This document shows, piece after piece, positions 3,001-55,914 of a stretch of DNA of 64,000 nt. The stretch's first letter is position 1; every line of letters starts with the position of its first letter. The DNA is from Mesodorylaimus sp. YZB2_4 (taxonomy: Eukaryota; Nematoda; Enoplea; Dorylaimida; Dorylaimidae). The position numbers were made by a program, and so were the translations under genes. The notes under the pieces are model-generated. The model made no database searches. It saw nothing but the letters and a program-made list of their open reading frames with translations, and had not been told where the DNA came from. Location of the stretch: the NCBI GenBank assembly GCA_030248295.1, contig JASANH010000950.1, positions 48,224 through 112,223 of the forward strand, read 5' to 3'.

Positions 3001-4696
3001 ATTATGGTCGGGGTTGGGGTTATAAAATTGTATATTAAATTATGAATTTTTTGCTAACAAGAAGTGCAACCAGAGAATCTTCTTGAGCTAGCTATACAAA
3101 GTATACCTCTGACAAGCACTTTTACTAAAAAAACAATCTGTGTGCTATCGGCTACAATAGTCTGCATCTGTATGCTCCAGCAAAGAAGACGGGTGAAGAT
3201 GAGGAAAATTCTGATAAGGGGGAAAATACGGAATCTGATCGTTAGCCAGAGGGTGTATCTGATGACCAATAGGAGCAAAGATAATTCAGTCCATGGAGAA
3301 ACATAAATACGTAGTGTATAACTTGGATTCTTATTTTCATTTGGTATTTATCTAATAACAAACGCATGATCCCTGTCTAAAATTTTGTCGTTATTTCTGA
3401 GATCAGTGACATCCGCTAAAAGTATTCTGCACATGCACTAAATCAATTGGGCTTGAAAATTCAAACTTAACAACCCCCCCCCCCCCCGACCCCGACCCCG
3501 AAAATAGTTGACCCCGGTCGAACGCTAGATGGTTGCTTCCAAGTTTGGTCAAACGGTTTGGTTCCTTGTCGAACAGAATTGTCCTCCCGCACCACGACCC
3601 CCCTGGCAACCCAGTCCTCAGTTCTAGCTCACGAATCTCCATCGCACCCACACTCACCCTGCACAAATATCTGCTCCTTCTCCTCACTGCCAACGTACAC
3701 ATTGGCCTCCAAGTAATTCTCGCGCGACACTTGGAACGAGCCTTGTTTGTACACGCCACTGTTGATCCCGCGTCTCAAGTCCGTCAGCGATTTGTGCTCA
3801 GGGAACAGGACGCCGTGTCGTCCACCGATCCTCGTCCTCTCATCTCCGCCCGCACGATCAGTAGAACTAGCCAATTTATCCAACAAATCCAGCCGATCCT
3901 TCATCCCACTCACGTACGTGGCCATCGTAATGGCCGTGATGCCTTCGTCGGATTCGGCTCGTGTCAAATTATCTCGATCATCCGTTAACAATACTACATC
4001 CAACTTCAATTTGTTTTTCATCGATTTTAAATGCGCTGAATACCTGAAAAACCAAGGTTCAGTCATCTCATCCCGACCGCACAAAAACTTGAGGCCTGAG
4101 CGGGAATCGAACCCCAAACAGCGCGATCACCAGTCCACCCTACTCGCCCAGGTCCGATTCCCTCTCAGGCCACGGCTTATCGCCAGCCCCCCTTACCACT
4201 TGGCCACCAATCGAATAGCTCGGTCATTTCTATCATTACTCGTCTCGCCCGGCAATCGATCCAAATACGTATTTTTGTGGAATTCATTATGAAAACAATA
4301 AAATTGTTTTTCAATCCGGCCAAAAATATCTTTCAATCGTTTATAGGCCGGGGGATTGCGATGTTTCACTTCTTCCATAACCGTCTGAGGAACGATGACA
4401 TTCTTGAACGCATCATCTTCCAAGACGTCCAATTGGTGAATGACCACATTCGAATCGGCCACCAATAGATGGGCATTCGAAATGGCCGACGTGGGTGAAC
4501 GACGATCGCTCACTTTCTCAATCAATAATCGACATTCATTGAATTCTTGGCAACTCTTACACCCGTCGATCCCGCAACCGATATCATCGCGAACATAATG
4601 TTCTCTCACAACTTTCAAAATATTACCTCGTTTAGTTTTTCTATAAAAAACTTTGTTCAAAACTGTTTTCGGTTCTTCAATAATCATTGATCCCAT
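1..4696 (-). CDS. DIS3: DIS3/RRP44 exosome ribonuclease, 5' part (gene continues past the left edge)
   Basis: Catalytic subunit of the RNA exosome, with a PIN endonuclease and an RNB 3'-5' exonuclease. Exons read on the minus strand: 4696-4197, 4043-3658, 2268-1694 and 172-1, with all phases closing. The first ATG in the family frame is 4696 ([11 protein letters not shown]); the open frame upstream has no ATG. Visible in order: the family N-terminus [11 protein letters not shown], a Cys cluster (CGIDGCKSC), PIN acidic residues in [27 protein letters not shown], the cold-shock region ([49 protein letters not shown]) and the start of RNB with the catalytic acidic motif [13 protein letters not shown]. 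About 544 codons are present of a usual 950 or so; the rest lies off the left edge. Introns 2 and 3 (about 1.4-1.5 kb) are filled with mobile elements. RNASEH2B ends 262 bp upstream on the same strand. Identification is secure. Confidence 0.95.
173..1693 (-). other. DIS3 intron 3 (about 1.5 kb)
   Basis: No coding signal of its own. It holds GATC-rich sequence (about 530-620 and 845-880) and a degraded copy of the roughly 200-bp TIR element (about 1396-1550). Donor and acceptor match GT-AG on the minus strand. Confidence 0.7.
1396..1550 (+). repeat. Dispersed TIR element (family B), degraded copy
   Basis: Shares the ordered blocks GCGGGAGAGA, ATCGATCTCTCC, CCTCGGATTGATGTTTCA, GTATAGTCG and CTCCAGTCGGAGTTTT with the copies at 12791, 18867, 37529 and 48160. 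Termini are eroded. It sits in DIS3 intron 3. Confidence 0.7.
2332..2505 (+). mobile_element. tRNA-derived SINE (family A), copy 1
   Basis: The head resembles a tRNA: an A-box-like stretch, then GTCTGCCTCTCACGCCAGG, then a B box (GTGTTCGACTC). The body contains CCCTCGAGTGCGCATAAGCG and TTGGTGATGTGG and ends in a GAACAT microsatellite. Related copies are at 20285, 23383, 27672, 39465 and 52773. It lies in DIS3 intron 2. It is not a functional tRNA gene, since no acceptor-stem closure is seen. Confidence 0.75.
2925..3535. mobile_element. hAT-like MITE with perfect 8-bp target duplication
   Basis: The element spans 2933-3527 (595 bp). Terminal inverted repeats read TAGCGTTCGACCGGGG inward from both ends. 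They are flanked by the direct repeat GATGGTTG at 2925-2932 and 3528-3535. Inside each end is a tandem of CCCCGAC/GGTCGGGGT units, and the middle is AT-rich. There is no transposase ORF, so it is non-autonomous. An 8-bp duplication is typical of the hAT superfamily. It sits in DIS3 intron 2. A distant relative is at 37909-38296. Confidence 0.85.
4083..4200 (-). repeat. tRNA-like sequence in DIS3 intron 1
   Basis: Read on the minus strand, an A-box-like TGGCCAAGTGG overlaps the exon 1 end and donor. A B box (GGTTCGATTCC) lies about 95 bp downstream, next to GCTCAGGCC. The A-B spacing is too long for an intact tRNA unless an insertion or intron is present. The inverted pair GGCCTGAG/CTCAGGCC flanks the insert. 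Probably a tRNA relic. Confidence 0.4.
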
Positions 4697-4957
4697 CGTT
4701 GATCGATCAGCTGAATATCGACACGTTCTAATCAATAAGAAATCCCCAAATCGAAATTCCTAAAAATACTTCCTTTATCTGCCATTCTTCAATCAACAAC
4801 CAAAACATCCATTGGCTCTCGCCAGTATGCTATCAATCAACAAATAACAGTGCTAAAACCAGTTTACTTTCACACACATCCTCCCATACGGAGTCATAAT
4901 CAAAAATCGTCGGATACAAAAATTAAGTCAAAATGTCATAAGGCTGTGCAAAAAAGC

Positions 4958-7236
4958 TTAAAAAACGACCAATTCATGAAGTTGTGGTGGCAACTGTTGT
5001 CGAACTATCTTCATCGCCAAGTCTCGATAAAATCGATCATCCGATGCTAAAAATAAGAAAATCTGCGTTCTTCGCCAGCGTCTGCCAAACGGATACAAGA
5101 CCACACATGCACAATACGGACACCAGGATGATCGAAATGGGTGGAACGGCCTGGCAAATGATGTAGGTATGTCCGTCACACAAATCCCTCTTTTCTAATG
5201 GTCAAAGATGGATAATGGTTGCCACCATCATGTGCGACCTCGAGTGCCCATGCCATGCCATCATGTAGACTAGGCTAGCCACCTCCATTTTACATTAGCC
5301 GAGCCACAGAAAGCCAGTGCAGTGGGGTAGGATAGACCAGATGGAGAAGAGGAATCCCAAGAGCATGGATAGTTGGCTACACATCCTCTAGCAGGTCTGT
5401 CTAACCCTACGATCAGGCTACCAACAGTAAACTACATCCTTGGACACAATGAACTAATGTCCCCCTCTGAACAGGTGCTCACTCAACGGAACAGAGGTTC
5501 GAATCATTGGTCCACCCATCCGCGAGACTCACTGCACAGGGCAACCCGTGAGCCCCCTATCATCCCTTAGCCACTCCAGACCTGTCAACCAGAACCTGAC
5601 CTACATACAGGACATAACACCACACACTCACTTGTCACGTCCTCTCGTTTCAAGTGTTCGTACACGCGTTTGACCTACAAACAACGAGATATTATTAACC
5701 CAAAATTTACCTCCTCCAATCACCTACCTTCTCCACCACCCAGTCCCCCAACTTTGACTGATCGACCCGGAATGTATTGAGATCCGATTCAGCTCCTGTA
5801 ACTGTCACTTTCAATTTTTCGCCATCCTTCCTTTGCTAGGGTAGATTTAGGCGTACCTGGAAATTGCCCAACGAGCCCTATCACTGACACGACGCTCTTC
5901 CAATGCCCGAACAGATCCAACGCAGAGTGCTGATTGGTCGATGACCCGTTATCGGATGGAGCCCGAGAATCCTGAAAGGAAGACTACAGTATAGGAACTG
6001 GCAGGTGCATGCAAAGGCACTTACATACCTGATTGAGCAAGTACGGCAGGACCAAAGTGAACGGATTGACTGGCGAAAGGATGTAAAATGGTTCGGCTGA
6101 AAAAAGGCATTCCAAAATCAGCAAGTACCTTAGCATGGTGTCGTGACTGCAAAAAAACTGAAGCAAAATATTGGAAATGGATTGGACACAATCTTAGGCT
6201 GGTTCTAAAATTGCAGCTAGTTATGAGAATTTTAAAAATTTTCTCGTGTTTGTCTCAGGCTACGGTTTCTCTTTTTCTAAACACAGTGCATCTGGACACC
6301 CCGAGGTCAGCAGGTTCGGCAAAAAGGGATCCAATGTTTGTATTTCTCGGATATCGTGCCAGGAAAAATTTGGGTCGACTTACAACATGATATCAAAGAG
6401 TTTCGATTTTCTCCACTTTTCAGGGAAGCAATTATAGTATGCGCTATAGCCTGTTTTTGTAACCAACCCTACGGCACGAGGGTTACATTTTGGTTATTTG
6501 ATGACCAAATGTGAAGGAACTTACTTGGTGGCAGGATTTCAGTCGGAGTCAACACCGATGCAAATTCTTCGTGCCGATACTGAACAATTTGCCAAACCAA
6601 TTCTTGTTCTTTGTCAACCACATAACACGACCAAGTACCTGCAAGCAAGGAATGTCAGTACTGTCACCACAATGACAATCCTTACCATGAACATACCCGT
6701 TTGAGGACACCGCAAACGAAGAGTGTCACAGTTTTCTGGTTTGTCTAAAACAAAAGACAAGGTATTGAAGCATTACAGGCGAGCTCCTGCAATCACCCAA
6801 ACTAACTGCAAGCATAATAAGTTCATGCTATTTGTCCTAGGATTCGAATTTGAGATTAGGCTTACAATTATATAATCAGTCAAGAGTATGGGAAACTGTA
6901 TAGAGCAGTGTGTACTATAATTTTGTCCGAGAAGAACTGTATTTGCGGTGGAGCCGAGATCCCTAAGTAGCCTACATAGATCCCTGTATAGAGCCGAGAT
7001 CCCTGTATATCGAGATCTGGAAAACTATTCCGTGACCCCGAAGTGCAATAGCCTGAAACTGGCAAGCCACTGAGCTTACATTCTTCCGGTGCCATAAGAA
7101 GACAATTATTAGTCTTCACCGCATCACACGAATCACCTATGGCCGCACCGTCCACGAGTTTCTTGACATTTGAATCGCCATTCTGATCGAGACGAGCCTT
7201 TTTATTACGGAGACTGTTTCGCGTTGCCGGTCCCAT
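4958..7236 (-). CDS. RNASEH2B: Ribonuclease H2 subunit B
   Basis: Non-catalytic subunit of RNase H2, which removes ribonucleotides from DNA and degrades RNA:DNA hybrids in the nucleus. Eight exons on the minus strand: 7236-7080, 6744-6697, 6638-6525, 6096-6029, 5971-5873, 5835-5728, 5674-5632, 5046-4958. The total of 726 nt closes in frame as 241 residues. Family landmarks: an N-terminal strand run (LRLRCPQTGTW, then SCYVVDKEQELVWQIVQYRH), the signature hydrophobic block SPVNPFTLVLPYLL (ATPVDPLFLLLHYL in vertebrates), then FRVDQSKLGDWVVEKVKRVY matching the KTLKWLEKKV helix, and a terminal helix DDRFYRDLAMKIVRQQLPPQL. The protein is shorter than human (about 310) and lacks the basic tail that follows this helix. 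One donor is GTTGGG (37-bp intron 5). A splice-acceptor-like TTGTTGTAG lies 18 nt before the ATG. Exon 5 is the weakest part of the model. Confidence 0.8.
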
Positions 7237-8196
7237 CGCACGTTGTTCTTGAATCTACAACAATTCAAGCCTAGACCTAGGTGATAGGTACGGTATGACA
7301 GGGCCAGGTATGAAGAGTTAATGTAGCGATAGCTGCGCCTTTTGAATTCGCATCTTTTCCCTGCTGTACGGCGAGCAGAAAACAAACTCAAATCTACAGT
7401 ACCGAAAACTGTGCCCAGTCACATGTATTTCGCACTTTTTTAAAATCAAAGAATGTTTCAAAACGGACATTTAATTCACTGTTGATAAAATGAATACTCT
7501 AAATTAATGTTTTAAAAAATATTAGTTGCAGAGTCAGCAAAAAATACCGGATTATTTGCAAATACTTAAAAAAAGTAAGTGAGAAATAGGTAGGAAAGGT
7601 GGAGCACATTTCAGCCGCACGGCTAACAGGAATATAACGTCTAGAAGCTCGATTCGTAATCACGACTGTGAGAGCTAAAAGATAGCAGAATGTTCCGGCA
7701 CTAAAGCTTAAGTGATCACGAAGTTAATAAATATCGGGGCGAACCCGACGGTAAGGCATCTTTCCACATAGCCTATGCTTATCACGAATTGCTTGCAAGT
7801 AGAAATCCAGCCTACTCGCAGAGATGTGCTGCGCGAATAAAAAACCAGATAAGAATGCAATGTAGCACTATGTCATGCAGGACGGCTTCCACTCCCTAAT
7901 TGGCTCGTGTGCACTGTCAGTAGCTTTCTTTCAACTAACCCGGACCAGTGGTCTACCAAATGTTCTGTTAGCCGTGCATACGCCAACTGTTTGGCGGCCG
8001 CTTTTGATCGTCTGATAATATGTACCGGCTAATATCCGAGATTTTCCACGATCGACGACAAATCTCGTCATCGGCAAAGCCACTGATATAGGCGGCAAGC
8101 GCGCTCGATCATTGTCGGTCTACCGGTCGATAGGGGCCGATCATTTGCTTTGGTATTCCGTGAAGACCGTGTTGACTATCTTTTGAAATTGCAAAG
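7237..8196. promoter_or_regulatory. Divergent intergenic region between RNASEH2B and ST7
   Basis: About 960 bp between two outward-facing start codons, so it must hold both promoters. The centre (about 7400-7590) is AT-rich and the ST7-proximal part is mixed. No TATA box or other element could be assigned with confidence, and no gene is seen. Confidence 0.5.
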
Positions 8197-11100
8197 ATGC
8201 TTCGTTATTTAAAGTCGTGGATTACATGGTCATGGACTTATTTGTGGGCGTTATGGTTCCTATTGGTCATCGCCCTGGTCTATACATTGCGCGGCCCGTT
8301 GAAGCTGAGCGATAGCATCGAGTCGAGTAAGCAAGCATTGTTTTTTGTTTGATTTTAAAATCAATGTTCACATGTTTTAGCAACGGTTTTTCTAAGCAAT
8401 TTGACCCCGAAATTTTACGTGGCTTTAACGGGCACGTCGAGTTTGGTTTCTGGAGTGATTTTGGTGAGTGGATTTTTTTATGGAAGCATGGGGCAGAGTC
8501 ATTCCCTTCTTTCTCTTGGGATTCGAAAGTCATTAAAACTGAGGAGATTGAATGCGCTCCTTGTTGACCTCGTAATCCCGTTTCGCGATGTCTAGTTGGA
8601 TGAGGAGGGAGGTCCGCGATAGATGATTGATTCAGGGCGCTTTGTTCATGACGCGCCGACGCTCTCGCGCTAGTTATGCAAATCAGCTGAAGGGCATTAA
8701 GACCAAAACAGGGTAGCCTGATTAGCAGCAGGTGAAAAGCGCCGTGTCTTTGTTGTCGTGCGAGCGAGGTTTATGCGTTTAAAGGACCAAGCGCCTACGA
8801 AACTGCTTCGAGAACTGACCTGGGAAAGGTCTGTCGCGTTATTCCTTGCTGCTAAGACTCTGCTGATGCTATAATCGCATGACTTTTTCTCATCCTTATT
8901 GCATTTTATAATTCTCACGCCTCACTCGATTATTACGAATTCTAAAAGTTTGTTTTTCAGATTTTTGAATGGTGGTACTTCAAGAAATACGGTTCTTCGT
9001 TCATCGAGACCATGTCTTTCAGTCCGTTGCAGTGGTTCGGTGGGGGTAACGGGTCGGAGAATGCTAACAGCTCGCCGAATAGTTCAGCCAGTTCTTCGTC
9101 TGTCAGTGCAATCGGAGCCAATGGCACGCATCACCATCATCATCATCACCGTCATCATAGTCGCGAGAATAGTCACGGCGATGGAAATCAATCGGATGAT
9201 AGCGACGATAGTAGCGTCAGTTCGACTTACGATGGATACGTTCCTGGTAAGGTCGTGGTCGCTACTTTTCATTATTCTCACATTTCACACATTCTTCCCC
9301 CTCGTTGCTCGTAATGCGGAAATCACCTAGTTATTTCTATCTAAAAAGTGACCTCTCGAATAGTCAGTCCTTGAAGGGGTCTCTCAAGTACTTTTGTTTT
9401 TCAGACTGCAAGATTTGGCGCAATTCAATGAACTTATTACGTGGTGCCGAGTACAACCGGTTTTCATCATCCGCTAACAAAGAACCATTGACTTACTACG
9501 ATATGAACTTATCGGCCCAAGATCATCAAAATTTCTTTACTTGCGATAGTGATTCGTCGAAACCTGACTTGGCCATAATGCAAGTGGCGTGGCGTGAACG
9601 GGATCCCGAGCTACGGATTAAAGCTGCTCGCAAAGCATTGGAAATAAATGCAGAGTAAGAAGACGATATGAATTCTAGATTTGACTTTAAAAAATGGCTT
9701 GGACTTTAAGATGCGCAACGGCCTTGATTTTGCTGGCTGAAGAGGAATCTAAAACTGTGACTGAGGTGAGTCCTATTGTAGTTTCCCGCCATGCTTGTTG
9801 GTGCTTTGCTGCACGCGAACAGTGTTTCAGGCGGAGCAGATCTTCCGACGCGCGCTGAAGAGTGGTGAAGCAGCTTATAAGAAGAGTCATCCGGCGACGG
9901 GTCCGATCGATGATGCTTTGCATAGTAAGTATTCATCATCGTGGTTGAAGATAGGAAAGAATGTTTTTGCATTTCTAGAACGTGATACGAATGTGATCAT
10001 TTACGTCCGTCGACGGTTGGCCATGTGCGCTCGTCGTTTGGGTCGTTTAAAGGAAGCCGTGACGCTGATGAGAAACGTATGTTGGGTGTTTCATGTCTTG
10101 GAATGTTTGAGAGACAATGGTTTCGTGCTTCAGCTAATCAAAGAATTTCCATCCATGAACGTTATGAACATACATGAGAACTTGATTGAAGCCTTGTTGG
10201 AGCAGCAAGCTTACGCTGACGCCCAAGCTGTATTAGCAAGATACGACGAGTTCAGCCTGCCCAAGTCGGCCGTCATATGTTACACGGCTGCCTTGTTAAA
10301 AGCTCGATTGGTGGCTGATAAGTGAGTATTTTTGAAGTTTTTTTGAGTTTGATTGTTTGATTGTCTGGAGTTTTTTTAGGTTTTCAGCAGATGTTGCTTC
10401 GAGAAAAGGTTTGAGTGCGGCTGAGTTATCAGCTGTAGAGGCCATACATAAGGCGGTCGAATTTAATCCACACGTACCAAAGGTAAGAATAGTCGATTAA
10501 AACTTGTTATTTCCCGGTGCTATTCGTTTTTCTTTGTTTTAGTACCTATTGGAGTTGAAACCTTTGATTCTACCACCAGAGCACATCTTGAAACGTGGTG
10601 ATAGCGAGGCTGTCTCCTATGCTTTTTGGCATTTGGCACATTGGAAACGTGTGGATGGGGCGTTGGCTTTGTTGCAATGCACGTGGGAAGGAGGTAAGTG
10701 TTGGCTTTTTTTGCGAAAATGATTCTTTCTGAAGTTTTGATTTTCAGCTTTTCGTTTATTGCCCTGCCCGCTGGAGAAGGGACTCGTATTTTATCCGTAT
10801 CCATCATGTACGGAAGCAGCTGATCGAGAATTATTACCAAGTAAGCCTGGTATTTACAGTATAGCAGCTACAGGTCGGGATCCTGATCTCGTCGGGATAT
10901 AACATCTCCCTATCCTGATCCCATGGGGCATTGGGGTCCTGCATGATCTTCTATTTATCTTAGCCTGTAGCAGCTCTTTGCGCAAGTCTTGGGGTGGGAG
11001 GAAAGGCTTATCTAGGTTTGCAAGTTCCATAGAAATGTCTTAGAAGTTTCAGAAAAGCTGTATGACTGAAAAATGCTTTAGTGTGGAAAATAGGCTCATA

Positions 11101-15000: not shown

Positions 15001-17823
15001 TCTGATGGTGGATTCATTAGTCTTCTTCTCCTCATTGATGGTCGACAGACGTTGGAGCTCATAAGTTGCCGAAGTGGGAATGTCCTGCGTGCCACGACCT
15101 GAACCAGTAGTCTGAACCTTTTCTTCGGAAGAAGCAGACGGTCGAGGCTTATCACCAGATTTTCCTGCCGTTTGCGTCTTATCAGCTTGTTTCTTGTGAT
15201 TAATCGCCGAACTCTTATCAGTTGCGGAGGCAGGATGCTTCTTATCGTTTTGCCCAGCATCTTTTTCACCAGCAGATGGCTGAACTTTACTTCCAGCACC
15301 AGCTATCTGATTCTTATCATTAGTCGTCTGAGCCGTGTCGCCTCCACTTTCATTCTGTCCTTCGCCACTCTTGAATAGAGTTTGAAGAAAAGCAAAAGGC
15401 TTTTTTGCCGATGATTCACTGCGGACGTCATTTCCAGCATTCGTCTGTGCTGGTGAGCCTTGGTCCATTTTCTTTTGGTTTTCAGATTTGGTCACTGCCG
15501 ATTCCGACTTTACGCTGCTGTTGGCTTTGCTTAGTGGCATACTAGAAGACTTCTCCACCAGTTTTTGTGATGGTAGGAATGGTTTGGCTTGAGCTTGAGA
15601 TCCCGAGTTTGGCTTGGTTTTGGTCAATGATGGAGAAGCAGCTTTGGCAGACGACAATGTCCTGGAGCCATCTGTGGTCGGTGTATCCGGCTCGTTGCGT
15701 TTTACTTTGCATGATTTGCACTTGCACGGACCAACGGCCGTCACGCGTGTGTGATGAATGTAACGAGGACTACGAGGCTTGTCTACCTGAAATATGTACT
15801 TGGTGAATCACCTGGCCCCGCAAGGATATGGAAATCGTATCTTCTACGATAGACTGGATAGCCCTACATTTAAGAAGATACCGCGGGGAGCGGATGTCTC
15901 CAAAACCCTCCAGGCACACCTCCTAGTCGTAGGAGGCTGATCAGACTGATCGTGAGACATTAACTCGACGGGTTTCTGATTCGCCTAGAGGGGTGTGGCG
16001 AGCGGGACGAAGGCAGCTGATACGCTGAATGTGGCGGCCAGTCAAGGCAACCACATACACTACCTTGTCCACAGGCCAAACACACCTATGTACACTTGCG
16101 CGTGCTCTCCGACCAACCTCCTACGCATGTGTCCACACCACATATGTAGACCCTCACTCATACTAGGGATAGCTTGGTCCGGATCCTGTCGAGATTTGAC
16201 CCCTCCTGATCCCGACATTGAGGCATCAGGATTCTGCATATATCCGTATACATATATATAAGCACGCTAAGTTTTCTTTTTTTGTGGGTTGAGTCCCGTG
16301 CCGCCCCAGTTTCCCCACGGGACTTCCAACCCGTTTTGCCTATAGCCGGCCAGCAGTCATGATATGATAAGCGATGCCGTGAGGTGACCAGCTCTCACGG
16401 CAGCGTCCCCCTGTGTGTCTCCACTAGGAGCACCTCCACGCGAGGGCATCCTGGACAGGACACCGACTTCCTCGGACGATGGTGGGGGCTTTGAACCCTG
16501 TCGGTTCGACAGCCGAGACTGTCTCCTCGTTTGGCTTCCGTCTCTCCACTCGGAGCACCTCGGCGGTACCGGGTAAGTCAGCCACGGCCTGGCGTGCAAG
16601 GTCAGCGAGGGTTTATGGTTCCCAAACCGACCTCCATCACCAGGGATCGAGCCCGGGCCGAGTCCAGCCACTCGCTCCCAATCAATGCGAAGAGACGAAT
16701 GCCGAACCGCTGCACCACCGCAGCCGCAACAAGCGCGATAAGTGCACTCTGATCCATCATATTTGCGATGAAGCAGTAGCAGCAATAGCGATGAAGTGGC
16801 AACAGCAACATCAGCTCAAATCGATGATAACAATAGCAACACTGATTTTGCTTAGCCTTGGCTGACCTTGCTGGACAGGGTTTGCGGAAAAGTCGCACAA
16901 CTCGCCCCTGACTCATTCTAAATTACATTTATGTTGTCATGAAACAATTCTCTTAATTGTTAGGGTTTCTGAAAGAACCTAACCGAAGGCTAGCCAGTCA
17001 AATTTTTTGATCAGCTGATGATCAAAATTTCGTTCCGTGATCAGCCGTGATCAGGCACGTGATCGGTGAGGAAAGTGGGCGCAAAGAAAAAAACCGGAAA
17101 AATGCAAGAAATTCCAATCCCAGCACCGATCCCGATCAGGATTGCCCTGATTCCGATCAAAAAAAAAGTGATCGTGACTCCCTAACTCACCCAATGAATA
17201 CGGGTACGGAATGGGACCATGAAAGACCTGGCTTAGCCACATCACAATGACCGGGAGCAGCTGGCACCACCAATTTGAATCACACTCACTTTTCCTTTGA
17301 GAGGCACCAACTGACCAGCTCGTCCATTCTTCTCACTCCTGCTCGCAGACAGCTGTCTAGCCTTTTGCATTTGCTGGCAGAATGCCACCGAGTTGAAACT
17401 TTCCAAGAGCATGTCCCCTCCAGGGCCTCTGCGTGGTGCTGGTGGAGGAACAGAGCGGCTTCTCGCAATTGGCCCTCTGGACCGCGTTCCATTTGATCGT
17501 GTGATCGATGACACCACATCATCGAGTACTTTCTCATTGCCACATCCTAGCTGCTTGAAAACTTTGTCTGCTGATAATTTACCATTGTGGCCTGGATCAG
17601 GTGATGAGGTGCCACGCTTGGATCCTTGGAAGACCACTCTCTTCGCTGGTCCACTTCGATCGGGTAAAGCTGTCGGGAGCTTTGTTTTGGCAAGCGGATT
17701 TACCCGTTGGGAGTTTGGTCTGTTGCGTGGTGACAAGACACCATTGTGATTGAGCCGTCTCGTGGGACCCGCACTGACAGCTAATAGTTTCGGGCGAGTC
17801 GTTCCAACAGCCGCCTTCTGCAT
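12007..17823 (-). CDS. MAP3K19: MAP3K19 (YSK4)-like STE-type protein kinase
   Basis: A MAP-kinase-kinase-kinase family serine/threonine kinase. Nine minus-strand exons: 17823-17290, 15786-14710, 14362-14264, 14022-13871, 13760-13581, 13297-13216, 13165-13056, 12349-12182, 12136-12007. The sum of 2532 nt gives 843 residues with closing phases. The first about 537 residues are low-complexity and basic/Ser-rich without known domains. The kinase domain is C-terminal: P-loop [16 protein letters not shown] lysine, [14 protein letters not shown], catalytic [10 protein letters not shown] (split across exons 5 and 6), [38 protein letters not shown] and a closing [13 protein letters not shown]. The IDFGCAxR motif and GGSxxSxxxxFGPL favour MAP3K19 over MEKK2/3. 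The ATG lies 7 nt after an acceptor-like CGACATTTAG. Exon 2 is rich in GATAAG, encoding Asp-Lys. The first exon could be preceded by others. Confidence 0.85.
12791..12986 (+). mobile_element. Best copy of the ~200-bp TIR element (family B), in MAP3K19 intron
   Basis: The ends are inverted: GTGTAACCCCCGCCTGGTAG at 12791 and GCATGCGGGGGGTTACAC-like sequence closing at 12986. Inside is a 160-bp core with GGCGAGTGGGAGAG, a TTTCAGTCGTAGGTAT block and CTTCAGTCGGAGTTTT. There is no ORF. More diverged fragments abut it at about 12515-12600 (inverted) and 12630-12790. Other copies: 1396, 18867, 37529 (inverted), 48160. Confidence 0.75.
13380..13530. repeat. CTGATAAG/CTTATCAG motif cluster in MAP3K19 intron
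   Basis: Six TTATCAG or CTGATA motifs in 150 bp, including the perfect hairpin pair GACCTTATCAG and CTGATAAGGTC near 13437-13470. The same motif recurs in introns at about 13770-13860, 17885-17905, 20080-20195 and 21035-21410. Confidence 0.6.
15886..16085 (-). repeat. Dispersed repeat (family C), inverted copy
   Basis: Reverse complement of the block also seen at 19240-19475 and 34755-34975. Shared pieces are GGGGAGCGGATG, the CAGGC...CTAGTCGTAGG stretch, CGACGGGTTTC, GGCGGCCAGTCAAGGCAAC and CCACAGGCCAAACACACC. It lies in MAP3K19 intron 1 and has no coding potential. Confidence 0.65.
16271..16735 (-). mobile_element. tRNA-derived SINE (family D), near full length with A-rich tail
   Basis: On the minus strand it opens with an A-box-like TGGTGCAGCGGT and a B box (GGCTCGATCCC) about 55 bp on. 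It runs about 450 bp and ends in CCACAAAAAAAG. Other copies: 44205-44600 and 49185-49650 (minus), and 50050-50400 (plus, truncated at its 3' end). The head-body-tail layout is that of a Pol III SINE. It lies in MAP3K19 intron 1. Confidence 0.75.
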
Positions 17824-18169
17824 ACCAAACCTAAATGTCGTTTAGTCAGCATCAGCAAAATATCTGTGACAGAAAGTACAGTAGCGTCTGATAAGAACAG
17901 CTGATATGATATCACAATCAGAACAAATCAATAACACTTTACTAAAACTACGGACTACATGACAGACCTACGACCTTACGCCCTCATCCACACTCCACTG
18001 GCACGTATGAACGCACTTGAGATTGGCACTATGCACACTTGCATCAGGTCACTGAAAATGCAAACATAGGACTAGCAGACTAATACTGGAAGCGGTCACC
18101 ACGTTGCCTATCACAGCACGAACGAGACAATTATGCAAGCACAAAAACAGTGGCTGATTTGTCCACTGA
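17824..18169. other. Short spacer between the PON-like gene and MAP3K19-like gene
   Basis: 346 bp on the minus strand between the PON-like stop and the kinase ATG. It has to serve as 3' end of one gene and 5' end of the next. An acceptor-like site sits 7 nt before the kinase ATG. A CTGATAAG motif is at about 17887. No promoter motif was recognised. Confidence 0.5.
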
Positions 18170-21932: not shown

Positions 21933-23002
21933 CAGCTCAAGATACTAAAAATATGGAATTATGACTAATGCCTTTTTTGTCGATGAGGTTGGAGGGAAAG
22001 AGGCAAACCGCCAGTGGAGGGCGATCTGGACGCGTCGTGCGGTTGCTAGGCAACTGCTATCCCTTCTCCAATGAGGGCAGCACACGTGTTGGCCGGGCTG
22101 GCCGGTTCGGAGTGACACCCTATATGGACACGGGGGGACGGGGTTTCGGAGAGACGGAAACGGATGGGCAGGAAAATACAGCGCTGTACCTATAGGCTTA
22201 AAATGTGCTCAAATATTTGGTTCTTTCATCGTTTTCCAAGAGCTTGAAAATTGCGAAGTGTAGTGCTGACTTGCGAGCAGCCAGTGGATGTACAAAGTTT
22301 TTGCATCTACTTTTAGCTGTCATTTTTGAGTTCTACAGGGGGGCAGTATGCGAGGCAACGTTTTCCATGGTTATAGCATGACAGAAGTAGGAAAAAAATT
22401 TTCTTAGTGCACATTGTAAATACCCAGGGGGAAATTATTATTTTAAATGCATCAGAGGCGGGGAAACTATTTGGGCGGGCGCTGCAACGTGCAAAGCATT
22501 TTGGCATCGAAGTTCTGATGTTTGTTTGAGTGATGTTTGATGTTTGACTGGGGCACCGGTACTCTTGCCCTCTTCTTCATTTGAAGAATCAGAAGAGAGT
22601 GTTCGTGGATTGTCAACATTAGCATCTTCTGTCGCAATAGGTACATATGCACAGTACATACCCCACAAACTACCGTAAGGAACTATTTTAATACAGTATA
22701 AACTAAATTAGAGTTAGGAGGAAAAAGTACCTAATTGAGCATGGTACCCTAAAATTACCGCCTGAACACCCCTGACAAGTCCATGTTTCTATGCGCATGA
22801 TTGAAATTTTCGAAGAAGCTGCTAACAAAATAATCTCTGGATGTTAAAAAACTTGAAAAACTGGTATTTGCTATCGAGCGTGCCCAGCGTTATTTATCAC
22901 AAAACATTTTCGTTTTTAGGTTTTGGTTCAAGATGCTTCAAGAGGAGACACCCAGAGGGACGCTGCTGTGTGCTGTGTGTGTCTTGAACAGCTGATTGCA
23001 AG

Positions 23003-37038: not shown

Positions 37039-37281
37039 TGCTCTTGGTTGATTCTCATGTCTCGTGCGGCCTGCTTATACTTTTCTGCCTCTTCATTTCG
37101 CGTTTAGCAATAAACGTGTTATCAGTGGAATGTGCTGGTATGAATTGGGCAAACAATGGTTATCTCGCCAGGATACTTGTTGTCGAGAGTGGGTGCTGGT
37201 TCTAAGTTTTAGGGGATGGTATAATCGAGATTGTTTTTAGGAACATTAGTCAGATCCGTCCAGTTGATGTCAACGGAGTGA

Positions 37282-42021: not shown

Positions 42022-42697
42022 AGTGTTGCACTGAATAGACCAGCTTTCAACTGATGTGCGTAAGGGATCTGGTTCTGCAGTCAGGGTGGTGCATGGTGGT
42101 GACGTTCATGTAGCTTGCAGTGGAGTGTGTGCTCGGTTGGCATGTATCAGTTTATGTGCGCCCATTCTTTTCTATTAGCACTGGAGTGTGTAGTTGGTCG
42201 AGATAAAGTGCAATGGTTGATAGTGTTCACCCCTATTTGGCAGTGTGGTTGACCAGACTTCACCTTTGCAGTGGTTGGAGTGAACTGGGTGGCCACCAGC
42301 GCGCGTTGGGCAACATGCTTGACAAAAAGCTAGACTCTATGCCTCGCGATGACAAGTGCAGCAGACAAATACTCAAGGGACGGCCAAGGCAGAATCGAGA
42401 TGGGGTGTCCAGTGTAATGCCCTATGGGAGGGGGTGGTCGTACCGGTGCAATGTCCATTTATGTTGTGACTGCTGTATGACATTGAGAACATGCAACAGA
42501 CTTTCACTTGCTGTACTGTGTGTGCAGTAAACCGTCAGTGCACCATCGCAGTGTCTCTACTGTATGTGACATCACCAATACTTTGCTCAGCGCCAATCGG
42601 CTTTACCTCGTCATTGTTTACCAAAGGGCTTTAGGAGTTGGCAAAGGCGTCACCGCTTACCCACCTCACACCAGTCCCAGCCTCGCTCGCTCGCTCG

Positions 42698-43818
42698 ATG
42701 GCCGATGGTGTCAGGTCGGAATATCAATCAAAGATGGCTTTTGTGGTTGGCTACACGGGAGAGACGGGCAAGGAATTGGTCAGGGAACTGCTGCAGCGCA
42801 AGGTGTTCCAAAAGCTGATTCTAATTGGGCGGAGACAAGTGCAGTTGGAAGGAGAATTGTACAAGGATGCGGTGAGTCGGGGTCAGGAAAGATTAAAAGT
42901 TGAATGCGTGACCCTATCCCACCACTGTGACCAGGATGGGCAGGGCTTTTGATGATAGTCCAAATGTTCGCCAATACAGACAGTTGCCCCCTGACAACTA
43001 CTGCTGTACAGAGCTGTCAGCTAGGAACGCCACCCGTCAGGGTGATGTTTCTGCCATGGACCTGGTCGGAAGATGCAGAAGCTCCACTGGTCACTCCCTC
43101 CTGTACTATAACCCAACTTACTGTATAACGTTCGAAGTTCAGGAACAAAGAGTCATCGACTTTGACAATATCGACCAGCACAAATCCGCCTTTGAGGATT
43201 GTTCAGTTGGATTTTGCTGCTTGGGCACGACTATGGCAAAATCAGGACCAGTAAGCCTGATTCTGTTTCTTGTACTTGTACAGCATATCGACCATTGCAG
43301 GCTGGTTTTGTGAAAATCGATCATGATTACGTGGTGCAAGTGGCAAGAACAGCACATTCGCAGGGCTGTCAGCACTTTTCAGTGGTTAGTTCGCGAGGAA
43401 CTGATAAGAACAGTCGATTCTTGTATCTCAGAACAAAGGTAAGAGAAGGTCAAGTGGCGCTCATTCCTGACTATATCCCTTTTTTAGGGACTAATGGAGC
43501 ACCACGTGGCCGAGTTAGGATTTCGACGATTCACAATTTTTCGACCTGGGTAACCAGCACATTTCTTTGGCCATATTTGGCTGAGGCATAACCCCTGCCT
43601 TTTGCAGATTGATTCTTTGCGACCGTCCGAATCGTACGATGCGGGAATGGTTAGGCATCATTGCCTTGAAACCAATCGTGTGGGCTCGACCAACATGGAT
43701 GTCGGTTCCAGCTACAACCATAGCCAAGGCTATGGTGGCGGATCTGCATCGCAAGGATTACAAGCCAGTGGATTTTGTTGAGAACGCGGATATTCATCGA
43801 TTGGCCAAAGAATTGTGA
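42698..43818 (+). CDS. HTATIP2: HTATIP2/TIP30-like oxidoreductase, copy 3
   Basis: Five exons: 42698-42871, 43143-43250, 43301-43438, 43488-43549, 43608-43818. 693 nt gives 230 residues with the same phases and internal exon sizes as copies 1 and 2. Motifs: GYTGETGKELVRELL, IGRRQVQL, VIDFDNIDQH, HFSVVSSRGTDK, YLRTK, FRPG-LILCDRPNR, DFVENADIHRLAKEL. The ATG at 42698 is preferred over an upstream in-frame ATG at 42638, because the intervening 20 residues are not conserved. Intron 1 includes a block (about 42995-43115) shared with 23225-23350. Confidence 0.93.
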
Positions 43819-45880
43819 GGAGTATCATTTGCACAAGATTCTTGGTTCAGGGTGGTGCACTTGTCTCGAGTGTAGTGCTAGCATGTGGTTATTATCCATA
43901 GGCCGTAGCGTGTAGTAAGCAAGGTATCCTGGCCATGGCCTTCACGACACAATATAGGGCAACTCTGGAATGGCTTAATTTGCTCACAGTCAGAGCGGAG
44001 ATGCATTTTAAATAATAAACGTGAATGATACAACAGCTGGGACCAATTTGTTCGTTCAAGGCCCCCCAGTCATCATATTTTCGTGGAGATCTGAAACAGA
44101 AGCGACTTTGCGTATTGAGGGAACCCGAAAAATACATGTACCGCAAGGAAGTACGATGATTTTAAGAAAAAATCGTAAAAACCACTAATTTTTAAAATTT
44201 GGAGGGGGCCCGCGCCGCTCCAGTTTTCCACGGGACCCGTTTTGCATATCCTGATAGCTAGTCAGCCGCCAAACCGTCTGAGCAAGGGTTTTGCGGGAGT
44301 CAGCACACACAGGTGTGCCCCTCTGCGTGTCTCCACTAGGAGCACCTCCACGCGAGGGCATCCTGGACAGGACACCGACTTCCTCGGACGATGGTGGGGG
44401 CTTTGAACCCTGTCGGTTCGACAGGCGAGACTGTCTCCTCGTTTGGCTTCCGTCTCTCCACTCGGAGCACCTCGGCGGTACCGGGTGAGTCACCCACGGC
44501 CTGGCGTGCAAGGTCAGCGAGGGTTTATGGTTCGCAAACCGACAGGTGATCAGTGATTGAATCCAGGGCGAGCCCAGACGAGCTATACATGGTAAGCATG
44601 GGCACTGTGGCGGAGTCGTGGCTTCCCTGGTCCTGTGACCAGGGAACGGTACCTCCACTGTATATACATTGCATGTAATGCACTCGCATTCCCGCAAGAG
44701 TGTGTCGCAGAGGACATGATAGAAACCTGCATAGGCTGGCCACAATCTCGTGATAAAAAGCAGAAAATGAGATGTTCTTCATGAAAATTCTGATCAGAGT
44801 GGATTGTTAAGGCAACTCTGTGCGAAGCCATTGGAAATATTACAATGGGATTTAAGTGCGACGGCGACGAGTAATTAGGTTTTATGAATTACGATGCTTT
44901 CTCGGAAGTCTCACCCTCGAATATATCGCAAAAGATAAGCCTCCCAAATATGCCCTGGGGGCCTAGTTTAAACTTGCGCCTCAGGCCTTATTTTTGTTTT
45001 ACCAAATAACCAAACTTTTCGGGATCCTTTTTTATGGGCGCAAAAACTGCTAAAAAATGTCTAAGATCTATTTTGGAAATATTATCGTCCCTCGAATATT
45101 TTCCCGTCCATACTCTTAAGTGGTCTCTATTTCATCTGGGGAAACTTTCTAATATACGCCATACTCTGGCATTGCTTATGAGTTCTGTGAATTTCCACCT
45201 CAGTGATCGGCTAGCCTACCCCCACATAAATCTTACGCGTCTTTAATCTGTGATATATATTCAATCAATGAATCGCTTCATAATTTCTAGCTGGCTTATC
45301 GATCTCATGTCGACCGCCGACAGACCAGGGATATGCGCAGCACAATTTTTTAATCAAGCAGGTGAAAACTGTTAAACGAATAGGCGTATAGGGTGGAATG
45401 CATCCTACCGGCCTAGCTAGCCTGTTCTTTTCTGCAACTCAAACCATGCTTCAACCATGCGACCTTTGAGGCATTCACCGTTCAAGAATGCTACCATGAG
45501 CATGCCAAGTCATATCGTCAGATCGTAATGAGACCGGACGATTATGTTTTTGATCGATCTCTTCAAAATGGCCTGGGTTTTGTTTCCCTGTAGGCATTAA
45601 TCTATACGATAAGTCAAGTTGAATATCAATTTCGCCATGCAGGCTCTCCTGTTTTTCTTTCTCCCGTCATCATCTCCCTTTGAGTCTCTCTTTCTATCAA
45701 CCCAATTCACCCGAGTAGCTCTGGGCAGACCTTTAAGTAAGGGAGCAGCTGAAACTGATATCAATAAATAAGCAGGTGAGCTGCTTTGCAGCATAAATTA
45801 CGCTTGAAAACGCACTTTGACGCTTTTAATTCGCCATACTGACTCGGTTACTTTACTCGACGCAGGAGTCCACACATACC
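43819..45880. other. Spacer between TIP30 copy 3 and the GPCR gene
   Basis: About 2 kb without a convincing gene. It contains a family D SINE (44205-44600) and AT-rich sequence around 44870-45250. An acceptor-like TTTACTCGACGCAG ends 15 nt before the GPCR ATG. Confidence 0.5.
44205..44600 (-). mobile_element. tRNA-derived SINE (family D) copy
   Basis: Nearly identical to 16278-16640 over the body (CTCCACTAGGAGCACCTCCA, CTTCCTCGGACGATGG, TCTCCACTCGGAGCACCTCG). The tRNA-like head is degraded (GATTGAATCCAGGGCG on the plus strand). Confidence 0.75.
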
Positions 45881-46882
45881 ATGTCTCTCAACAACACGAC
45901 ATCCGTGCCACTGTCCGCAGTCACCATCTATCCGACTGAGATTATCTTATCAGGCCTGTACTGCTTGATGGCCGGGTTGGTCGGCATTGGGACCAATTCG
46001 TTGACCATAATTGGCATTTCGATGAACAAGAAACTGCGCACTCCTTGTTTCACAGTTCTGCTTGCCCACGCGATTTGTGGCTGGTTAATGGCCACTGGAT
46101 TCATCAACGATGGCGTGCAACGACTGGGAATTTTTATGAATGTGCTGGGTATCCGATACAGCAGGCTCGCTTGCTATGCCATGTTCATTCCCAAGAGCAT
46201 CAGCATTCCACCCAGCGCCATATTCGCCTGTGTTGTGGGCCTGGATCGCATGTACGGTATCGCATTTCCCGCCCAATATAGAAAGTACGCGAAAAGATTC
46301 GTCGCTGCATCATTGGTCTTCGGTGGTTGTGTGGGTCTAGGTAACATCTTGGCGGCCGGTCTCTCTGCTCCTGCTCCAATCACTGGAATGATCATGTGCT
46401 ACAACTTCTTCTCCGCCTTTCACCCCGCTTTCACAAGGTACTATACCAATCACAACTTAGCATTCTGCGTCTTATCAGTGTGCATCTATGCTTCGATCAC
46501 GAGCATCGTAAAGTGTCGGCAGATCAAAAGTGATGAAAGTTCCAATCGATTTTTACAAACTCAATTGTCCATTTTGCCCATCATGCAGACCATCATGGTG
46601 GCCTATTTAGTATTTGGTGTGTGCCCCGAGTTCATGGTTGCCATCCTAGCCCTGGTCCGAAACGGCATCTATCAGACAAAAATTGTTCTGTATTCGTCAA
46701 TGCTTAAAGTGACTAGTGTGTGTACCGACTTTTTTATTTTGCTATGGAAAAGCAAGGAATTCAAAACAACAATTGGACGACTGTTTCGCCGTGGAAACGC
46801 CGCAGTATTACCAGCGCCGAACACAGCCAACGCCAAAAGTGGAAGTGCCCAGGCAATCAGTATTCACGTTGTTCAAGCTTAA
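45881..46882 (+). CDS. Class A-like seven-transmembrane receptor (nematode SRSX-like)
   Basis: Single-exon gene of 333 residues. Seven hydrophobic segments are visible, starting near residues 21-48 (LYCLMAGLVGIGTNSLTIIG), with GTNSLTI resembling the TM1 GN motif. TM3 ends in LDRMYGIAFPAQYRKY, a DRY-type motif reading DRM followed by the AxxxPxxYR loop of nematode SRSX-type chemoreceptors. TM7 lacks NPxxY and reads VTSVCTDFFILLWKSKEF, again like the srsx NFFVYYWRSxEYR pattern. The short N-terminus has possible glycosylation sites (NNTT). The Cys pair in loops 1 and 2 is plausible but unproven. The ligand is unknown; a chemosensory or neuropeptide role is only inference. Confidence 0.85.
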   Translation: MSLNNTTSVPLSAVTIYPTEIILSGLYCLMAGLVGIGTNSLTIIGISMNKKLRTPCFTVLLAHAICGWLMATGFINDGVQRLGIFMNVLGIRYSRLACYAMFIPKSISIPPSAIFACVVGLDRMYGIAFPAQYRKYAKRFVAASLVFGGCVGLGNILAAGLSAPAPITGMIMCYNFFSAFHPAFTRYYTNHNLAFCVLSVCIYASITSIVKCRQIKSDESSNRFLQTQLSILPIMQTIMVAYLVFGVCPEFMVAILALVRNGIYQTKIVLYSSMLKVTSVCTDFFILLWKSKEFKTTIGRLFRRGNAAVLPAPNTANAKSGSAQAISIHVVQA

Positions 46883-49135: not shown

Positions 49136-49184
49136 TTTGCAATCAAGAATTCCGACCTTTTTTCATAGGTGCTTCTTTTTTTTG

Positions 49185-52296: not shown

Positions 52297-52504
52297 CAGC
52301 ACTGTCAGACAACAGTCAGTAGTACTGTTGGACAAGTTTTTGTCGTTGCAGTGTGCTAAAGTTTTCTTTCATCTTGTTCTTAACTATTTTGGTTGCTTGG
52401 GCGATGAATATTTTGCTAACGGTGCTGACGTTTAGGTTCGACGCGACCAATACGTCGTTGCCGAATCGGGTAGTTGGGCACTCACAATCAGTCAGCTGTC
52501 GCCG

Positions 52505-54345: not shown

Positions 54346-55170
54346 TTTCCGTAATCTTACCTGAGGACTAGCGTATAGCTTCATAGGCTAGGGGAGGGGG
54401 CCGTATGTTTTGCGGTTGGCGGTCCCGAGCGGTTGCTGTTAAGCGAGTTTGACTGTACCGTGTACCTGTACTGTGAGTATCGCCCAATCATTTTCGAAAA
54501 AAAGTTCTGCGACATCGCGTGAAAATCGAGTTTGCAGAAAAAGCACTGTTGCGTCAGCACTCATGGGTGCATCAAACTCACACATAAAAGTGAGAGAGTA
54601 TCAAAAATTAAAGGTTGTGTTTCCATGTTTCCTGTAGGTCGAACCTCAGTGAAAGCTTAATGCCAAGCTTTCTTTGTACCGAATTTAATCCCCACAAGTC
54701 CTACTTATTTAATAGTACCTTGCCTGAAATATTACTTAACGTTATGCTGCTCTGTTTGATCTGTTGCGCAAAAGGAAGATTATTTTCTGTCTCTTTGTAG
54801 TCTCACTGCGTTCACGGGGGCGTCGTTGGTAGTCTGATCTGACTTTCGCTCTCGTGCATCATGGGCATTGCACAAAGTGTCACCCGAATTTGGCACGCAA
54901 ATTGTATAGTTTTTAAATAGTGAAATGTGCCACTGCTGTCCCGCTCACTAGTGAAAATCGTGATTACGTGAACGGGGCACGTCTTGTGCACAGAACGCAT
55001 CCATCCGTTTTTCTTGTCACTTCAGACTCGCATGAGAACTGACTAAAATAGGAAAGAGAAAGGCACTTTTCACTTTCTTCGCCTGTTAGTACTGGCGAGC
55101 AGTGAATTGCCTGGAAGGACCTCCGGTTTTTAAATTACATCCCACTTTTACAATTTTAAGAGTCGACAAA

Positions 55171-55914
55171 ATGATGGATACCTCGTTCGTTATCATTTCT
55201 GTCCTATGCCTGCAAGTCGCCTTAGCTTATCCCATTGACAATAATTTGCACGAATTGGTTCGATATCGTCGAATTAGACAAGTCCTGCACCACAATTTAC
55301 CATCCGTAGGTCATCTTCCTCCTGGTTTCGTCAGAGCCAGTGATACAGCGGGCGGAAAGATTTTATCATTTGCTGGACAGCCACCAACAAGACAGCTGGG
55401 CGAATTGACTCCTCCTCAAGTCTCAGTAGCTGGGCCACAGATATTACCTGGCGGAGATCGATCTTCGATTCCAAATTCTGGACTGACAAATTCAGGAAAC
55501 GGACCTCAACTACCACCTAGCTCTGGCAGTGGAACCCAACCACAGCCAAATCCCCAACCCTTACCTGGTTCGGACGGCTCTAATTCACAGTCACGGCCTC
55601 TACCACCGAATGGCCCACCACCAGACGGAGTGCCTGACAACCTCGGTCAAATTAGTCCAAACGGACCTTTGGATCAATTTCATCCAAACCCAGGACAGTT
55701 CCAACCGTCAACCGGCCAATTTCAGCCGGGCCCAGGTCAGTTTTCTCCCAATGGTCCGCCGCCGAACGGATTGCCTCCTAATGGCTTACCACCAAATGGG
55801 CTGCCCCCCAATGGTCTACCATCTTTGCCGAATGGACAAGGAGGGATCGACGCAGCGAATGCCATTGGTTCGGCCGCTCAGAATGCGGCACCGCCAAATC
55901 CGTTCGGTCGATAG
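55171..55914 (+). CDS. Secreted proline/asparagine/glycine-rich protein
   Basis: Single open frame of 247 residues from ATG 55171. A signal peptide is clear (DTSFVIISVLCLQVALA, predicted cleavage before YPIDNN). It is followed by a basic segment (RYRRIRQVLHHNL) and then a long low-complexity region in which Pro, Asn, Gly and Gln dominate. Near the C-terminus four PPNGL units repeat in tandem (residues about 194-215), preceded by three GQF(Q/S)P units. No domain is recognised. It could be a structural, cuticular, mucus-like or precursor protein. The ATG follows an acceptor-like CAATTTTAAG by 10 nt. The sustained open frame, signal peptide and repeat-consistent codon degeneracy support coding. 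Confidence 0.75.
   Translation: MMDTSFVIISVLCLQVALAYPIDNNLHELVRYRRIRQVLHHNLPSVGHLPPGFVRASDTAGGKILSFAGQPPTRQLGELTPPQVSVAGPQILPGGDRSSIPNSGLTNSGNGPQLPPSSGSGTQPQPNPQPLPGSDGSNSQSRPLPPNGPPPDGVPDNLGQISPNGPLDQFHPNPGQFQPSTGQFQPGPGQFSPNGPPPNGLPPNGLPPNGLPPNGLPSLPNGQGGIDAANAIGSAAQNAAPPNPFGR

What the first reader, a model, noticed from the sequence alone, without database searches (positions are those of the whole stretch)
4696..55171. Splice-acceptor-like sites just upstream of most start codons: candidate spliced-leader trans-splicing and polycistronic units
Seen: a pyrimidine-rich tract ending in AG lies shortly before the ATG of RNASEH2B (18 nt, TTGTTGTAG), DIS3 (63 nt, GTATTTTTAG), PON-like (12 nt, ATATTTTTAG), MAP3K19-like (7 nt, CGACATTTAG), IFT27 (17 nt), unknown gene (10 nt, CGTGTTTCAG), TIP30-1 (41 nt, ATTGTTTTTAG), GPCR (15 nt) and the Pro-rich secreted gene (10 nt). 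Genes occur in same-strand runs with gaps of 244-440 bp (RNASEH2B to DIS3; PON-like to MAP3K19; VPS35L to unknown gene to TIP30-1). Known: such sites accept a spliced leader in nematodes, flatworms, rotifers and some other animals. Inference: these genes are trans-spliced and some may be operonic. AG after pyrimidines is common by chance, and cis 5'-UTR introns are an alternative.
Basis: partly seen in the sequence, partly recalled or inferred. Interest (0 to 1): 0.75.

Follow-up and report, generated by a model that had tools for sequence, protein, structure and literature searches.

The report
Nematode spliced-leader acceptors and leader-gene candidate
This DNA most likely comes from a roundworm, and some of its genes carry, just before their start codons, sites where a short shared leader is probably spliced onto the messenger RNA, as roundworms commonly do; a likely leader gene was found beside the 5S ribosomal RNA genes, but no RNA data were available to prove it.

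Summary
The nine AG sites are present as written, but "most start codons" is too strong. With an acceptor matrix from 13 cis introns, 9 of 21 supported starts (11 window, 10 Ras-family genes elsewhere) score in the top 10% of window ATGs. Under composition-preserving shuffles this falls to 6 of 21 (Fisher 0.0055); the window alone is not significant (0.099) and the letter-reversed control is not beaten. Eight window sites show no donor excess within 350 nt upstream, unlike real cis introns, against short 5'-UTR introns. The genome is most likely a nematode's (18S motifs recalled; 27 TTR-52 matches, Srsx receptor), so trans-splicing is expected. SL1/SL2 searches found none. The 5S-array spacer holds an SL-RNA-like element: donor A|GTGAGT, Sm-like AATTTTTCG 33 nt on (3 of 5 U1 genes here: AATTTTTTCG), 69 copies, all in two array blocks; the stretch around its donor is the least variable of the unit. 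Against it: no U1-type promoter element, fold no better than shuffles. Best reading: partial trans-splicing in a nematode with a divergent 5S-linked leader. Operons possible, unproven.

The parts
4696..4769 (-). DIS3: acceptor GTATTTTTAG (4760-4769), 63-nt leader region, start codon ending the feature at 4696
   Evidence: score 9.4, p 0.035 vs ATGs; shuffle p 0.138; best upstream donor p 0.61
7236..7263 (-). RNASEH2B: TTGTTGTAG (7255-7263) and start at 7236
   Evidence: best site in 65 nt is TTCAAG at 11 nt, score 6.7, p 0.127; shuffle p 0.050
17823..17840 (-). MAP3K19-like gene (start uncertain): CGACATTTAG (17831-17840)
   Evidence: 3.6 when only 25 nt are searched (p 0.158), best 6.3 at 64 nt (p 0.143)
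21932..21954 (-). PON-like gene: acceptor ATATTTTTAG (21945-21954) and start at 21932
   Evidence: score 8.0, p 0.081; shuffle p 0.136
26174..26200 (-). IFT27: CTCCTTCAG (26192-26200) and start at 26174
   Evidence: score 4.0, p 0.314; weak
33073..33093 (+). Unknown gene (start uncertain): acceptor CGTGTTTCAG (33073-33082), ATG at 33093
   Evidence: score 7.8, p 0.090; the exon is open in frame upstream, so it could be an internal exon
37230..37282 (+). TIP30-1 (HTATIP2-like): acceptor ATTGTTTTTAG (37230-37240), ATG at 37282
   Evidence: score 9.6, p 0.034; shuffle p 0.107; best upstream donor p 0.25; human HTATIP2 aligns from residue 1
45852..45881 (+). GPCR (Srsx family): TTTACTCGACGCAG, ATG at 45881
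   Evidence: score -3.3, p 0.907: not an acceptor by this matrix; PF10320 E 5.2e-20
55150..55171 (+). Pro-rich secreted gene: ACAATTTTAAG (55150-55160), ATG at 55171
   Evidence: score 9.1, p 0.048; shuffle p 0.084
8197..8199 (+). ST7 start codon, without a strong acceptor (counter-example); the ST7 introns supplied 12 of the 13 cis acceptors of the matrix
   Evidence: score 2.3, p 0.504
28647..28649 (+). VPS35L start codon, without an acceptor (counter-example)
   Evidence: score -3.9, p 0.927
42626..42698 (+). TIP30-3: GGGCTTTAG (42626-42634) 63 nt before ATG at 42698; weak
   Evidence: score 2.9, p 0.436
4760..4957 (-). RNASEH2B-DIS3 gap, 198 nt from stop codon to end of acceptor: possible operon spacing
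   Evidence: no AATAAA, one GATAAA

Best explanation
The window is nematode DNA. A part of its genes (6-9 of 21 tested) carries a strong splice acceptor 9-63 nt before the start codon, with no matching donor nearby upstream where that could be tested; these sites most likely accept a spliced leader in trans, so that the 5' part of the pre-mRNA (the outron) is discarded and the leader becomes the mRNA 5' end. In the window this fits best DIS3, TIP30-1, the Pro-rich gene and the PON-like gene, perhaps also the unknown gene and RNASEH2B. The leader is most likely given by a small RNA encoded in the spacer of the 5S rRNA array, on the strand opposite to 5S: exon ending ...GCGAGAGCACTGACTGA, donor GTGAGT, Sm-like site AATTTTTCG. 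Shown: acceptor enrichment (weak to moderate), lack of donor excess, conservation, copy number and linkage of the element. Inferred: that the element is transcribed, that its exon is joined to these genes, and that close same-strand neighbours share a transcript.
For: Nematode identity: 18S (motifs recalled), PF10320 receptor, 27 TTR-52 matches. Acceptors: 9 of 21 starts in the top 10% of ATGs, binomial 9.5e-5, and Ras genes alone 5 of 10; 6 of 21 under shuffles, Fisher 0.0055. Donors: 8 window sites Fisher 0.91 against 0.0011 for 13 true introns with leave-one-out matrices, Mann-Whitney 0.0005. Leader gene: core in 49 of 56 distinct 5S flanks, the other 7 being dispersed-type 5S; 69 copies, all in C32:847-862 kb and C295:0.3-7.8 kb, backward control 0; -16 to +23 around the donor varies least of the unit, 0.2-1.0 variants per site against 1.3-4.8 in 5S; donor plus Sm-like site in 30 of 5,000 shuffles; 3 of 5 U1 genes have AATTTTTTCG. 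Precedent: C. elegans SL1 in a 5S array; partial trans-splicing with unusual leaders in T. spiralis (passages).
Against: Window alone not significant under shuffles (0.099), and the letter-reversed control is not beaten (p 0.34; 8 against 4 sites scoring 8 or more). A scan for ATG after acceptor-like motifs was negative (needs first exons of 60 codons or more). The element lacks the U1 promoter element at up to 4 mismatches, with about 55 nt between 5S and donor; its fold is not better than shuffles and its Sm-like site is more variable (about 6 variants per site in that 10-nt block) than the donor region. No SL1 or SL2 match. No transcript data.
Confidence: 0.65

Rival explanations
1. The acceptors are the 3' ends of ordinary cis introns in 5' UTRs, with local non-coding first exons upstream.
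For: The acceptor sequence is the same as that of cis introns; introns longer than 700 nt were not tested; for the Ras genes only about 60-120 nt upstream were seen, so donors could not be tested there.
Against: No donor excess upstream of eight window sites within 150, 350 or 700 nt; for DIS3 only 198 nt separate the upstream stop from the acceptor; four of the five Ras genes with sites (L110-L113) match the Ras profile over 144 positions or more in one open frame, so no intron interrupts that part.
Confidence: 0.17
2. The sites are chance AGs in T-rich upstream sequence, helped by the reader's choice and by starts that are really in internal exons.
For: Window Fisher 0.099 under shuffles and the reversed control not beaten; GPCR, IFT27, MAP3K19-like and RNASEH2B not in the top 10%; MAP3K19-like and unknown-gene starts uncertain.
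Against: Ras starts, chosen without regard to upstream sequence, have 5 of 10 in the top 10% and 4 of 10 under shuffles, Fisher 0.0088.
Confidence: 0.18
3. Trans-splicing is real but the leader comes from other genes; the 5S-spacer element is something else, such as a regulatory element of the 5S array or another small RNA.
For: No U1-type promoter element, weak fold, leader unlike SL1/SL2; T. spiralis has 15 SLs encoded by up to 48 genes (PMC7986045, passages), so several genes are possible. The core is close to palindromic, which also suits a DNA-binding site.
Against: Donor, Sm spacing, U1-like Sm sequence, multicopy 5S linkage, and the strongest conservation around the donor.
Confidence: 0.3

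Closest known systems
Caenorhabditis elegans SL1 RNA in the 5S rRNA array
   Same: Multicopy leader gene in a tandem array with 5S rRNA (about 110 copies in C. elegans; PMC1657053, passages); donor followed by an Sm-like site
   Different: Leader and SL RNA do not match SL1; unit only about 304 bp; no U1-type promoter element found
Trichinella spiralis and Trichuris muris spliced leaders
   Same: Leaders on a part of the genes: about 30% (at least 38% by SLIDR) in T. spiralis, more than 50% in T. muris; T. spiralis leaders are unusual; Sm site 20-50 nt from the donor in T. spiralis (PMC7986045, passages)
   Different: 15 and 13 different leaders are known there; here one candidate only; kinship of this species to them not tested
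Hydra spliced leaders
   Same: Sm sites GAUUUUCGG and AAUUUUCG (PMC7986045, passages) resemble the two variants here, GATTTTCCG and AATTTTTCG
   Different: Different phylum; resemblance only, no homology claimed

Membership tests
Spliced-leader RNA gene (the 5S-spacer element) | Exon followed by a GT splice donor | tested here: met
   A|GTGAGT; 42 of 49 array spacers with an exact core, 7 with one mismatch; 51 of 69 genome copies exact
Spliced-leader RNA gene (the 5S-spacer element) | Sm-like site 20-60 nt after the donor | tested here: met
   AATTTTTCG 33 nt on; donor plus Sm-like site in 30 of 5,000 shuffles, motif fixed after seeing the sequence; variant GATTTTCCG in a second spacer type
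Spliced-leader RNA gene (the 5S-spacer element) | Stem-loop that pairs the exon end with the donor region | tested here: inconclusive
   Predicted in the alignment of 47 distinct copies with almost no compensatory change; 25 of 200 shuffles fold as well
Spliced-leader RNA gene (the 5S-spacer element) | snRNA-type promoter element upstream (as in this genome's U1 genes) | tested here: not met
   U1 element at up to 4 mismatches is found in no array locus; common in snRNA genes, not strictly defining for SL RNAs
Spliced-leader RNA gene (the 5S-spacer element) | Exon found at the 5' end of many mRNAs | not testable with these tools
   No transcript data held
Nematode SL1 or SL2 | SL1 or SL2 sequence and structure | tested here: not met
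   SL1 22-mer with up to 3 mismatches 0 hits; RF00199 0 at E<=10; RF00198 0 at E<=10; only the best candidates of a first look are scored
SL trans-splicing of the window genes | Splice acceptors just before start codons, above chance | tested here: inconclusive
   21 starts Fisher 9.9e-5 vs ATGs, 0.0055 vs shuffles, window alone 0.099, not better than the reversed control
SL trans-splicing of the window genes | No partner donor in cis | tested here: met
   Eight sites, up to 700 nt upstream; longer introns not excluded
Trans-spliced operon | Close same-strand genes on one pre-mRNA, downstream gene trans-spliced | tested here: inconclusive
   Gaps of 198, 339 and 430 nt from stop to acceptor (with the PON stop corrected); two of the three downstream starts uncertain; no transcript data

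The most novel reading that the evidence does not exclude
The nematode uses a leader unrelated to SL1 and SL2, encoded in the classical 5S-linked position by a gene without the usual snRNA promoter element; if the exon reaches its ATG, every trans-spliced mRNA would begin with a mini-ORF (ATG CGA GAG CAC TGA). The 5S linkage would then have outlived a complete replacement of the leader sequence.
Probability: 0.3. Interest if true: 0.6.

Novelty: new member of a known kind. Interest (0 to 1): 0.4.

Why it matters
If right, it gives the likely leader of a nematode in which SL1 and SL2 were not found, so that RNA-seq from this species could be mined at once for trans-spliced 5' ends and operons; and it bears on how leader sequences turn over while their genomic home beside 5S rRNA stays.

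Tried and rejected
Rejected: that most starts carry sites. Without a strong one are ST7, VPS35L, TIP30-2, TIP30-3, GPCR, IFT27 and the Ras starts L104, L105, L106, L108; L103 (p 0.129) and RNASEH2B (0.127) are borderline. A self-trained gene finder collapsed into two giant genes and was not used. A scan for ATG after acceptor-like motifs was negative. A genome scan with the U1 promoter element was swamped by a repeat (1,707 hits); the two non-U1 loci and five small pieces read in full for non-repeat-like variants gave no new snRNA gene by eye. A search of papers for the letters GCACTGACTGA gave 17 papers, 15 listed, none on spliced leaders by title. A first guess that the organism was a tardigrade was dropped. 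Rfam found nothing in the window at gathering scores and only 5S in five 5S loci at E up to 1.

Rows dropped: of 14 Ras pieces fetched, 4 were left out of the counts: L107 (too little upstream sequence), L109 (start unclear), L114 and L116 (start lies in an earlier exon). The MAP3K19-like and unknown genes were in the 12-start test but not in the 21-start tests. The first-look script for the acceptor matrix stopped with an error and was rerun; one search stopped after the donor test and was rerun with leave-one-out matrices.
Full report
What the organism is. The window is part of a 145-Mb assembly in 1,067 contigs. An 18S gene was found with a typed piece of human 18S (L061, 1,712.7 bits to RF01960); it carries motifs that I recall as nematode-type. 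The GPCR at 45881-46879 is a Srsx-family receptor (PF10320, E 5.2e-20). TTR-52, a family that I recall as nematode-typical, has 27 matches. I take it as a nematode; the clade is not settled. The SL1 22-mer with up to 3 mismatches, RF00199 and RF00198 gave no match; only the best candidates of a first look are scored, so this is not absolute.

The observation. I trained an acceptor matrix on 13 cis introns, 12 of ST7 and 1 of the PON-like gene (ST7 frame recalled; later PON exons by tblastn), and scored the 65 nt before each start against 2,114 window ATGs. Of 12 starts, five are in the top 10% (TIP30-1, DIS3, Pro-rich, PON-like, unknown gene); RNASEH2B and MAP3K19-like lie at 13-14%, IFT27 at 31%, TIP30-3 at 44%, ST7 at 50%, GPCR at 91%, VPS35L at 93%. 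TIP30-2, scored, lies at 80%.

An independent set. A Ras-family search (166 matches) gave N-terminal exons; letters for 14 could be fetched in small pieces, of which 10 show a clear start codon. Five of 10 have a site at p<0.1: 10.8 at 20 nt (L110), 12.9 at 58 nt (L111), 11.8 at 36 nt (L112), 11.4 at 9 nt (L113), 8.2 at 40 nt (L115). With the 11 supported window starts, 9 of 21 pass p<0.1 (binomial 9.5e-5; Fisher 9.9e-5; window alone 4 of 11, Fisher 0.041).

A harder control. Dinucleotide shuffles of each upstream region, which keep its T-richness, leave 6 of 21 at p<0.1 (binomial 0.014), Fisher 0.0055; the Ras set 4 of 10, 0.0088; the window set 2 of 11, 0.099. Against the reverse complement the paired test gives 0.041 (8 against 0 regions scoring 8 or more), against the letter-reversed sequence 0.34 (8 against 4). 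So the enrichment over both sets is of moderate strength, and the window by itself does not prove it. A further scan, for ATG with an open frame of 60-80 codons after [CT]TT[CT]AG, showed no excess of ATG over other codons; it misses genes with short first exons.

Cis or trans. If the sites were 3' ends of short 5'-UTR introns, a donor should lie upstream. The best donor within 350 nt is unremarkable for all eight window sites tested (lowest p 0.25, Fisher 0.91), but enriched for the 13 real introns with leave-one-out matrices (0.0011); the groups differ (Mann-Whitney 0.0005; 0.012 at 150 nt, 0.0002 at 700 nt). Longer introns are not excluded, and the Ras pieces are too short for this test.

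The leader gene. 5S rRNA genes fall into a tandem array of about 304-bp units at the end of contig C32 and the start of C295, and dispersed copies elsewhere (47 scored matches). The array spacer holds, on the strand opposite to 5S...GCTGTAACTCGAGACTAACAAATGCGAGAGCACTGACTGA|GTGAGTGCATCGATCGTCAATCTGCGAGAGGGGAATTTTTCG... With up to 3 mismatches its 23-base core has 69 copies, 51 exact, 13 with one, 4 with two, 1 with three mismatches, all in C32:847-862 kb and C295:0.3-7.8 kb; the backward pattern has none. A 124-base query gave 40 scored matches, again only there. Sought through the 5S gene alone, 49 of 56 distinct flanks hold the core (42 exact, 7 with one mismatch); the 7 without it belong to dispersed 5S copies. 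Among 56 distinct units, the stretch from -16 to +23 around the donor varies least of the whole unit (0.2-1.0 variants per site per 10-nt block), less than 5S (1.3-4.8); the block with the Sm-like site has 6.2 (units were chosen there by a core with up to 3 mismatches, which favours the core somewhat). A second spacer type keeps a Sm-like site (GATTTTCCG) while the sequence after it differs. A donor followed by a Sm-like site arises in 30 of 5,000 shuffled spacers (motif fixed after seeing the sequence). Of 5 U1 genes, 3 carry AATTTTTTCG, the others AATTTTTTTG and AATTTTTG.

Points against the leader gene. The U1 genes share an element ACCCGTCGCGTTGATGTTTC 55-58 nt before the transcript; in no array locus is it found at up to 4 mismatches, and only about 55 nt lie between the 5S gene and the donor. 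The predicted stem around the donor shows almost no compensatory change, and folds of five pieces are not better than shuffles (25 to 124 of 200 as good). No exon copy outside the array was found.

Operons. RNASEH2B-DIS3, PON-MAP3K19-like and VPS35L-unknown are close same-strand pairs with 198, 339 and 430 nt from stop codon to acceptor (PON stop corrected by reading its printed sequence); no AATAAA lies in the three stretches printed there, one GATAAA in the first. [quoted passage not shown] This is compatible with operons but no more.

Setting in the literature. [quoted passage not shown] T. spiralis has 15 unusual leaders on about 30% of genes, and more than 50% of T. muris genes receive leaders (PMC7986045, passages). 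A partial rate with a divergent leader therefore fits a known pattern. I found no paper with this leader (by letters) or (by topic); apart from passages of PMC7986045, PMC1657053 and PMC12460157 I saw only listings.

Verdict.

Noticed in passing
Own genome, rows (e.g. C191:117555-118037, C122:206524-207003): 20 of the listed Ras-family matches run over profile positions 1-2 to 144 or more in one frame without a stop, although genes such as ST7 in the window have a dozen introns; retrocopies or intron loss may be common.
   Followed up: no
L012-L060 against L001, L008, L011: Two 5S rRNA types: array copies differ from dispersed copies at several sites, some by eye paired (GGGCCC against GAGCTC), as if two functional 5S classes exist.
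   Followed up: partly
L062 (C162, around 143599-143749): A second, degenerate 18S copy, interrupted by unrelated sequence (1,287 bits against 1,713 for L061).
   Followed up: no
Window + strand 1439, 12863, 18942, 19365, 23253, 34861, 43032; genome-wide: A dispersed repeat holds ACCCGTCGGGTTGATGTTT, nearly the promoter element of the U1 genes; the degenerate pattern has 1,707 hits at up to 1 mismatch, the backward control 4.
   Followed up: partly
Window 37264-43809: Three tandem HTATIP2/TIP30-like genes on the + strand with different upstream regions; only the first has a strong acceptor.
   Followed up: partly
Window 39537-39620 (-): A predicted tRNA-Glu (CTC) within the first TIP30-like gene region, on the other strand.
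   Followed up: no
Window 57707-58327 and 58849-59331: Coding-length minisatellite: open frames that repeat DLIIDHRR.
   Followed up: no
Window 26174-24618 (-): IFT27 exons match human IFT27; I recall that C. elegans lacks IFT27, so this nematode may keep a gene lost there.
   Followed up: no
5S-spacer element: If the leader exon reaches back over ATGCGAGAGCACTGACTGA it holds an ATG with an in-frame TGA; some array copies change the donor GTGAGT to GTAAGT, also a good donor.
   Followed up: no
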